Below, piece after piece: positions 32,594-34,577 of a stretch of 36,916 nucleotides of DNA. How positions within the stretch are numbered: position 1 is the first letter of the stretch; each line of letters starts with the position of its first letter. Source of the stretch: Candidatus Pacearchaeota archaeon (GTDB lineage Archaea > Nanobdellota > Nanobdellia > Pacearchaeales > GW2011-AR1); contig JACPXY010000054.1 in NCBI GenBank assembly GCA_016196285.1, positions 1-36,916 of the forward strand, in the 5' to 3' direction. Both the position numbers and the translations under genes were made by a program. A model generated the notes under the pieces. It did not search any database, was not told the DNA's origin, and saw nothing but the letters and a program-made list of their open reading frames with translations.

Positions 32594-33607
32594 ATGGATG
32601 AGAGATTTGACTTTATTATAATTGGGGCTGGATGCACAGGTCTTGCTGCTGCGATGTATGGTGCGCGGCTTGGGATGAAGACACTCTGCCTTGGTGCGAT
32701 GCACGGGACCGAGCTGCCTGTCGGAGGAGTTATAACTACTACTAATATTGTAGAGAATTATCCGGGATTTATCCGGTTGAGCGGGAGTGAACTTGCGGAA
32801 GCGCTTGAAAAGCATGCGCGAAGCTATGATTTGGTGGATATTAGAGAGGAGAAAGCTGAGAAGATTGAAAAAGCCGGCAAAGGATTCTTTGTCAAGACAA
32901 AAAAGAATAATTATCATGGAAAGGCGATATTATTCGCCACAGGGACTAAATGGAGAAAGCTTGAAGTACCTGGAAGTGCAGAACTTGAGAATAAAGGCGT
33001 GGCATATTGTGCTTTATGCCTACATCCTGATGAAGAAATAATATCTAACAGCAATATTATGAAGATAAAAGAAGTTACTCCTGGCACTAGGGTCCTAACA
33101 AAAGAGGGAAGATATCAAAATATTGCAGGATTTACAAGAATTGATTATGAAGGCAAAATAATTAAGATAAGACCACGTTTATTTAATGAATCTGTAAGCA
33201 TAACTGCCGAACATCCTGTTCTCACACTTAAGGTCAATAGGGGAATAGGAAATAACTATTGGAGAGATTTTAAATTCGAAGAACCAGAATGGAAAAAAGC
33301 TGAAGAACTCACTACTGATGATTGTGTTCTATATCCAATAATAAAAGAGGTAGAAGACAAAGAATTTATCAAATTAAGTGATTTTCTTGAATTAAGAAAA
33401 CAAAATGATAGTGTTATCCCCCATAAGAAAACACATACTGCAAAGGTATTAAATGATAAGATTTATCTTACGAAAGATTTAATGAGATTGTTTGGGTATT
33501 ATCTTGCTGAAGGTTCTGCATCTGGACATCAGCTCAATTTTTATTTTAAAGAGAATTCCTCACTTTTTGACTATCCTTCCTGTCGAAAAACAAAAAGAGT
33601 TAATTAA
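32594..33607 (+). CDS. trxB: Thioredoxin reductase N-extein + intein N-terminal part (first ORF of interrupted gene)
   Basis: FDFIIIGAGCTGLAAAMYGARLGMKTLCLG; GVAYCAL then intein CLHPDEEI...; stop at 33605-33607 inside endonuclease region. Confidence 0.9.
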   Translation: MDERFDFIIIGAGCTGLAAAMYGARLGMKTLCLGAMHGTELPVGGVITTTNIVENYPGFIRLSGSELAEALEKHARSYDLVDIREEKAEKIEKAGKGFFVKTKKNNYHGKAILFATGTKWRKLEVPGSAELENKGVAYCALCLHPDEEIISNSNIMKIKEVTPGTRVLTKEGRYQNIAGFTRIDYEGKIIKIRPRLFNESVSITAEHPVLTLKVNRGIGNNYWRDFKFEEPEWKKAEELTTDDCVLYPIIKEVEDKEFIKLSDFLELRKQNDSVIPHKKTHTAKVLNDKIYLTKDLMRLFGYYLAEGSASGHQLNFYFKENSSLFDYPSCRKTKRVN

Positions 33608-34037
33608 AGGATGGTGGAGGGGGGATGGTTGCATGAGAGAGAAAGATTTTTGTATAGTAACAAGTTCAAGAAAACTTGCGTACCAGATGAGAGATATCTT
33701 TCTAAGAACGGGAATTATTCCTTCTTTGCAAAAAAGAGATAAAGACAAACTAAACGCAATTCCACATAAAATTGAAGGAAGAGATGTTTCGTTTACACAT
33801 GACAAATATCATATTCTTGTCGGAGGGCAGTTCTTGGAAAAAATGAACGATATTTTAGAAATAAAGCATCCCCTGATTGATAAAAGAAAAAGCACTCTCC
33901 AGCATGCTTGGATAAAAGGTAACTATGCCATATTGCCTATAAGAAGTATAGAGAAGATAGATTATAAGGGGAAAGTTTTAAGCATCGCAGTTGAAAATGA
34001 CGGAAGTTTTGTGGCTAAGAACTTTATAGTCCACAAT
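33017..34037 (+). mobile_element. Intein in thioredoxin reductase, endonuclease internally deleted and frameshifted
   Basis: Block A CLHPDEEI, block B SITAEHPVLTL, motif LFGYYLAEGSASG, motif LIKGWWRGDG, C-terminal block GKVLSIAVENDGSFVAKNFIVHN followed by C+1; 1021 nt (not a multiple of 3). Confidence 0.92.
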
Positions 34038-34577
34038 TGCGATGCGCCTCTGTTTAAGAATAAGATTGTCGGACTAATTGGCGGCTCAGATTCTGCTGCA
34101 AAGGATGCATTAGTCCTAGCGGAACATGCAAAGAAAGTGTATATCTTCTATCGAGGAGAAAAGATACATCCAGAACCGGTTAACCTTCTGCGAGTAGAGG
34201 AGAAGATGAAACAAGGCAAGATTGAGATAATTAACAAAACAAATATACTGGAGATAAAGGGAAGAGATTTTGTTGAGAGTGTGATTCTTGACAGAGATTA
34301 TAACGGAAGCAAGGAATTCAAGCTCCAGGGAGTTTTTGTAGCAATAGGCCATGTTGCCTTGACTGACCTGGCAAAAAAACTTGGAGTAGACCTTGACAAG
34401 AAAGGAGAGATTATCATCGACCACAAGACTAGTGAGACGAATATTCCTGGAGTATATGCTGCTGGAGACTGCGCAGACAAGCCGTTCAAGCAGGTGATTA
34501 CTGGTGTTGCTGAAGGCTGTACAGCTGCATATTCTGCATATGAATTTATTACTAAAGAGTATGTTGAGACTAGTTGA
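33633..34577 (+). CDS. trxB: Intein C-terminal part + thioredoxin reductase C-extein (second ORF; open frame extends up to 33492)
   Basis: HN|CDAPLFKNKIVGLIGGSDSAAKDALVLAEHAKKVYIFYRG...GVYAAGDCADKPFKQVITGVAEGC; ATG 33633 preceded by GGAGG with about 8-12 nt spacing. Confidence 0.85.
   Translation: MREKDFCIVTSSRKLAYQMRDIFLRTGIIPSLQKRDKDKLNAIPHKIEGRDVSFTHDKYHILVGGQFLEKMNDILEIKHPLIDKRKSTLQHAWIKGNYAILPIRSIEKIDYKGKVLSIAVENDGSFVAKNFIVHNCDAPLFKNKIVGLIGGSDSAAKDALVLAEHAKKVYIFYRGEKIHPEPVNLLRVEEKMKQGKIEIINKTNILEIKGRDFVESVILDRDYNGSKEFKLQGVFVAIGHVALTDLAKKLGVDLDKKGEIIIDHKTSETNIPGVYAAGDCADKPFKQVITGVAEGCTAAYSAYEFITKEYVETS

What the first reader, a model, noticed from the sequence alone, without database searches (positions are those of the whole stretch)
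33008..34043. Intein inserted between the two catalytic cysteines of thioredoxin reductase (CAL|intein|C)
Seen directly: the host reads ...GVAYCAL | CLHPDEEI...FIVHN | CDAPLFKNK..., so removing the intein restores YCALCDAPLF, the TrxR CxxC redox motif. The second redox Cys is also the C+1 splicing nucleophile. No functional TrxR active site exists until splicing is complete, and the splicing cysteines sit at a redox centre, so splicing could respond to cellular redox state. Inteins favour active-site motifs, but this placement couples the splicing nucleophile to the host catalytic residue.
Basis: partly seen in the sequence, partly recalled or inferred. Interest (0 to 1): 0.85.

Follow-up and report, generated by a model that had tools for sequence, protein, structure and literature searches.

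The report
Frame-broken intein in archaeal thioredoxin reductase
A self-splicing protein insert (an intein) does sit between the two active-site cysteines of this archaeon's thioredoxin reductase, as in at least four other archaea, but this copy has lost part of its homing enzyme and its reading frame is broken there, so it cannot be made and spliced as one chain exactly as written.

Summary
The intein is real. The host matches thioredoxin reductase (TrxR, TIGR01292) on both sides. The insert has Cys1, block B TAEH, LAGLIDADG motifs and a C-terminal HN|C. Removing it gives YCALCDAPLF, as in intein-free relatives.

ORF1 (32594-33607) ends at TAA; the second half (to 34577) is in another frame. 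Compared with intact inteins at the same TrxR site in a Pacearchaeon, a Woesearchaeon and a nanoarchaeote, about 55 residues of the endonuclease domain are missing at the break (33548-33554). A Micrarchaeon also has an intact one.

The window has the only TrxR intein among 206 genomes of its order, and its host gene sits in an intein-free clade, so the intein was probably acquired horizontally.

The redox idea is plausible but untested. In all five TrxR inteins the other redox Cys is at -3, giving Cys-x-x-Cys1, and an extein-Cys to Cys1 disulfide that blocks splicing is reported for the MoaA intein. Here the host motif dictates that geometry.

For this copy an assembly or population artefact, a recent real lesion, and a naturally split intein remain open. 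Raw reads would decide.

The parts
32594..33016 (+). N-terminal half of thioredoxin reductase (N-extein), ending YCAL; first redox Cys (33008-33010) is at position -3
   Evidence: TIGR01292 match to residues 6-142 of ORF1, E 6.8e-34; sequence
33017..33553 (+). N-terminal part of the intein: Cys1 at 33017-33019, block B TAEH at 33203-33214, LAGLIDADG motif 1 (LFGYYLAEG) at 33488-33514
   Evidence: TIGR01445 24.1 bits; alignment with intact homologues
33548..33554 (+). AAAGAGA at the break: frame changes by +1 and about 55 codons of the endonuclease domain are missing relative to intact homologues
   Evidence: three-frame translation; alignment; profile split into two matches, 1-186 and 190-403
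33605..33607 (+). TAA stop that ends ORF1 (32594-33607)
33552..34037 (+). C-terminal part of the intein in the other frame: LAGLIDADG motif 2 (LIKGWWRGDG) at 33600-33629, C-terminal splice motif FIVHN ending at 34037
   Evidence: LAGLIDADG_3 32.1 bits, Intein_splicing 22.7 bits; alignment
33633..33635 (+). ATG in the C-terminal frame, 25 nt after the ORF1 stop, with GGAGG at 33616-33620; a possible restart site only (the GGAGG is part of the codons for WRGDG)
   Evidence: function not shown
34038..34577 (+). C-terminal half of thioredoxin reductase (C-extein), beginning with Cys+1, the second redox Cys
   Evidence: TIGR01292 match E 4.4e-45; 66-76% identical to intein-free relatives over this half

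Best explanation
This is a LAGLIDADG-bearing intein that moved horizontally into the codon of the second redox cysteine of an archaeal thioredoxin reductase. In intact relatives it should splice by the standard class 1 route: N-S shift at Cys1, transfer to Cys+1 (the second CxxC cysteine), then Asn cyclisation, leaving an intact CxxC centre. In the precursor the first redox cysteine stands at -3, so Cys(-3)-x-x-Cys1 could form a disulfide that stalls splicing under oxidation. In the window the core of the endonuclease is missing (about 55 codons) and the frame breaks at that point, so the sequence as assembled encodes two reading frames and not one precursor. Shown: intein identity, site, frame break, missing segment, homologues, no second TrxR found in the bin. 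Inferred: splicing chemistry, horizontal homing, redox response, recency of the break. Not known: whether the break exists in the living cell and, if so, whether the halves still work together.
For: Host and intein profile matches; intact inteins at the same TrxR codon in G336, G378, G443 and a Micrarchaeon, with LAGLIDADG_3 above cut-off in the three tested and Intein_splicing above cut-off in one; none in the rest of the 206 genomes of the order; window TrxR nested in an intein-free clade with support 100/99; frame break and 55-residue gap; no departure at 80 positions otherwise invariant in the family, and end branch equal to the median, so damage is recent; MoaA precedent for a Cys(extein)-Cys1 trap (PMC10663303).
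Against: Splicing and redox response were not tested by experiment. Window halves alone score just below the curated intein cut-offs. Host and intein identity are equal for the nearest pair (59/59), so horizontal transfer rests mainly on the patchy distribution and on the Micrarchaeon. The break could be an assembly artefact.
Confidence: 0.85

Rival explanations
1. The frame break is an artefact of assembly or of mixed strains; the living population carries an intact or in-frame shortened intein and TrxR is made as one chain in the ordinary way.
For: TrxR halves show no decay; splice motifs intact on both sides; the bin is a 72-contig assembly, 81% complete; no other TrxR found in it.
Against: A missing stretch of about 160 nt is not a simple base-call error; the long conserved genes elsewhere in the window look uninterrupted; no second allele was found in the bin.
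Confidence: 0.45
2. A real, recent deletion destroyed the endonuclease core and, being out of frame, inactivated TrxR in this lineage or in part of the population.
For: Sequence taken at face value; other interrupted inteins exist in the class: G474 in SufB and G411 in an IscU-like gene.
Against: No sign of relaxed constraint in TrxR; it is the only TrxR found in the bin.
Confidence: 0.33
3. A naturally split intein: ORF1 gives TrxR-N plus N-intein, translation restarts downstream (for example ATG 33633) to give C-intein plus TrxR-C, and the two join by trans-splicing.
For: Both splice halves are conserved and the break lies in the endonuclease, a dispensable part; stop and ATG are 25 nt apart with GGAGG between them, and GGAGG-like sites precede several operon-internal genes in this window; TrxR halves undamaged.
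Against: The GGAGG is simply the codons of the conserved WRGDG motif; the stretch before the ATG is still conserved (LPVEKQKELIKG identical to G336), as expected for a very recent or absent break; no relative is split.
Confidence: 0.12
4. Ribosomal frameshifting (+1 at AAA-GAG, 33548-33553) restores one chain with a shortened intein.
For: A +1 shift there would give FYFKRIPHF, which fits the family on both sides.
Against: No recognised shift signal, no relative with a shift there, and the missing 55 residues need a deletion anyway.
Confidence: 0.04

Closest known systems
TrxR inteins of Candidatus Pacearchaeota Meg22_810_Bin_147 (L092/G378), Woesearchaeota NC_groundwater_440 (L093/G336), Nanoarchaeota UBA10136 (L095/G443) and Micrarchaeota DBS1-1.bin129 (L094), found here
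   Same: Same host, same codon, same splice motifs, Cys at -3; 42-59% intein identity to the window
   Different: One open frame with a 392-395 aa intein and complete LAGLIDADG domain; the window lacks about 55 aa and is frame-broken
Pyrococcus abyssi MoaA intein (Callahan 2011, as described in PMC10663303)
   Same: Oxidoreductase host with an extein Cys that can pair with Cys1
   Different: The disulfide trap is documented there and only inferred here; the host is unrelated; I did not compare the sequences
Inteins at WCPG|C of proteins that look like 2-oxoacid:ferredoxin oxidoreductase beta (for example L098-L102, L123-L126)
   Same: Inserted at the second Cys of a CxxC motif with Cys at -3 and HN|C+1; about 26-33% identical by tblastn
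   Different: Different host; host named here from its sequence and not by a model
Natural split inteins and fractured genes (cited in PMC6801210: Wu 1998, Dassa 2009)
   Same: Break lies inside the intein; trans-splicing would be needed
   Different: No evidence of trans-splicing here; known split inteins are mini-inteins, while this one keeps both LAGLIDADG motifs

Membership tests
Class 1 intein | Cys, Ser or Thr at position 1 and block A-like start | tested here: met
   Cys at 33017; TIGR01445 24.1 bits, just under its 24.5 cut-off
Class 1 intein | Block B TxxH | tested here: met
   TAEH at 33203-33214; TPNH or TPQH in homologues
Class 1 intein | C-terminal His-Asn followed by Cys, Ser or Thr | tested here: met
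   VHN|C at 34029-34040; same in all homologues
Class 1 intein | Precise absence from homologous hosts, with a seamless junction | tested here: met
   32 same-group family TrxR genes lack it
Class 1 intein | In-frame fusion with both exteins | tested here: not met
   Frame break at 33548-33554 in the window; met in the four homologues
Class 1 intein | Self-splicing | not testable with these tools
   Needs expression
LAGLIDADG homing endonuclease | Two LAGLIDADG motifs in a continuous domain | tested here: not met
   Both motifs present, but about 55 residues between them are missing and they lie in different frames
Thioredoxin reductase host | TIGR01292 match and CxxC centre | tested here: met
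   Partial matches by both halves (each below the whole-protein cut-off of 343 bits); CALC after joining
Redox-trapped intein | Extein Cys that forms a disulfide with Cys1 and blocks splicing | tested here: inconclusive
   Cys(-3) present in all five TrxR inteins; disulfide not tested
Natural split intein | Two separately translated halves that trans-splice | not testable with these tools
   Two ORFs exist; translation start and trans-splicing unknown

The most novel reading that the evidence does not exclude
A deletion in the endonuclease has recently turned a TrxR intein into a natural split intein, so that the CxxC redox centre is assembled by joining two separately translated proteins, one redox cysteine from each, with the Cys(-3)-Cys1 pair acting as a redox gate.
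Probability: 0.1. Interest if true: 0.75.

Novelty: new member of a known kind. Interest (0 to 1): 0.42.

Why it matters
Thioredoxin reductase keeps cellular thiols reduced. An intein placed so that its Cys1 recreates the host's Cys-x-x-Cys motif in the precursor is a natural counterpart of the redox traps studied by experiment, and the four intact homologues found here make the question 'does redox state gate splicing of a redox enzyme?' directly testable. I found no report of TrxR inteins in the open papers held, but that library lacks most intein papers of subscription journals and the intein databases. The window copy, if reads confirm the break, would be a snapshot of an intein losing its endonuclease or of a split intein being born.

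Tried and rejected
A conserved extra domain of TrxR instead of an intein: rejected, because 32 same-group relatives in the family, including two of the same genus, lack it. A single-sequence scan of named genomes found nothing; an alignment query worked. Scans of viral contigs failed three times for technical reasons, so a viral carrier was not tested. The GGAGG before ATG 33633 looked like a ribosome-binding site but is the codon sequence of the WRGDG motif. Matches in G158 and G076 that ran into the intein part of the query proved to be intein-free TrxR genes. A second TrxR or second intein allele in the bin was looked for and not found. Structure prediction was not run: it returns no coordinates, so it could not measure the Cys(-3)-Cys1 distance.

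Full report
Observation. The coordinates hold. TrxR reads NKGVAYCAL up to 33016, an insert begins with Cys at 33017 and ends NFIVHN at 34037, and TrxR resumes with CDAPLFKNK at 34038. Both flanks are thioredoxin-disulfide reductase (TIGR01292, 6.8e-34 and 4.4e-45). Joining the flanks gives YCALCDAPLF, and intein-free TrxR genes of the same family read CALCD (one CAICD) at that place. The insert carries intein and LAGLIDADG signatures: TIGR01445 at 24.1 bits against a cut-off of 24.5, Pfam Intein_splicing below its gathering score in each half, LAGLIDADG_3 above its cut-off.

The insert is not one frame. ORF1 from ATG 32594 ends at TAA 33605-33607, and the C-terminal part runs in the next frame to 34577. 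The change lies at 33548-33554: the first frame reads NFYFKE, the next reads KRIPHFLTILPVEKQKELIKGWWRGDG. Alignment with intact homologues shows that 55 residues of the endonuclease between these points are absent. The missing length must be 2 modulo 3, so about 164 or 167 nt if the original matched its relatives.

Relatives. A search of the phylum sample found three genomes of other families with the same intein at the same TrxR codon, in open frames of 724, 703 and 737 codons (G336, G378, G443). A scan of named genomes gave their identities (Woesearchaeota NC_groundwater_440, Candidatus Pacearchaeota Meg22_810_Bin_147, Nanoarchaeota UBA10136) and a fourth example in Micrarchaeota DBS1-1.bin129. 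The matching of G and L handles rests on equal contig lengths and sequences. G336's intein passes the Pfam splicing cut-off and all three tested pass the LAGLIDADG cut-off. The closest solved chains by sequence are V-ATPase inteins, PI-PkoII and MJ0781.

Spread. All 206 genomes held for the order were searched; only the window has the TrxR intein. In the host tree the window TrxR lies inside a clade of intein-free family enzymes (support 100/99), nearest G112 at 76% identity, while the other intein bearers lie outside; the label needs at least three changes on the best tree. Intein identity exceeds host identity for the distant Micrarchaeon (46 against 37% with G378, 42 against 35% with the window) but equals it for the nearest pair (59/59). 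The simplest reading is horizontal arrival in the window lineage from an unsampled donor; many losses are not excluded.

State of the gene. The window TrxR departs from its relatives at none of 80 otherwise invariant positions, its end branch of 0.25 equals the median, and the stretch just after the break still matches G336 closely. So the lesion, if real, is recent. No other TrxR was found in the bin, which is 81% complete. Among the intein matches listed across 377 genomes, only the window, G411 (one TGA, IscU-like host) and G474 (SufB, break in the endonuclease) are interrupted.

Mechanism. For intact members the standard class 1 path is inferred from Cys1, TxxH and HN|C. The special point is Cys(-3): all five TrxR inteins have it, because the host motif supplies it. 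A review (PMC10663303) describes an extein-Cys to Cys1 disulfide in the P. abyssi MoaA intein that blocks the first step under oxidation, and PMC6195587 shows a catalytic-Cys disulfide in mycobacterial DnaBi1. A redox gate is therefore plausible for TrxR inteins. It is not shown, and conservation of Cys(-3) cannot count as evidence, since the enzyme needs that residue. Of 62 related inteins from the scan, 34 have Cys at -3, mostly at WCPG|C of what looks like the 2-oxoacid:ferredoxin oxidoreductase beta subunit; that sample is biased by the search patterns.

The window copy. Its status in the cell is undecided. An artefact or mixed population fits the undamaged host best. A real inactivating deletion fits the assembly at face value. 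A split intein with restart at ATG 33633 would reconcile both, but its apparent ribosome site is just the codons for WRGDG and the segment before the ATG is still conserved, so it has no positive support.

Known or new. TrxR as an intein host was not found in the open papers searched, which is weak evidence because most intein papers are not held. I file it as a new member of a known kind, here in damaged form.

Noticed in passing
L175 (G474:C8:78000-82500, - strand): The SufB intein of another genome in the class is also frame-broken inside its endonuclease domain (KNGVSLKIF stop, then ASRFFKNEF in another frame).
   Followed up: partly
L174 (G411:C7:14000-17500, + strand): An intein in an IscU-like gene is interrupted by one TGA between block B and the endonuclease.
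   Followed up: partly
L048 / L170 (G081:C2:6891-7019, - strand): A 43-residue fragment 79% identical to the window C-intein lies in unrelated surroundings in a family member; it is the closest relative of the window intein seen, and looks like a remnant or an assembly chimera.
   Followed up: partly
L098-L102, L106-L111, L113, L114, L116, L118, L121-L126, L128, L130-L132, L136, L141, L149: Related inteins sit at WC[PA][GA]|C...HN|CG in what looks like 2-oxoacid:ferredoxin oxidoreductase beta subunits of Nitrososphaera-type archaea, Aenigmatarchaeota, Bipolaricaulota and Levybacteria, again with Cys at -3.
   Followed up: partly
L031, L039, L044: Related inteins in a PHP-domain protein (endonuclease Q-like) at IPAHC | C(M/W)TP.FG in several family members.
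   Followed up: no
window gene starts, for example 5027(-), 26408(+), 32594(+) against 7301(-), 9380(-), 16098(-): Several isolated genes have a TATA-like box about 25 nt before the ATG and look leaderless, while several genes inside operons have GGAGG-type ribosome sites.
   Followed up: no
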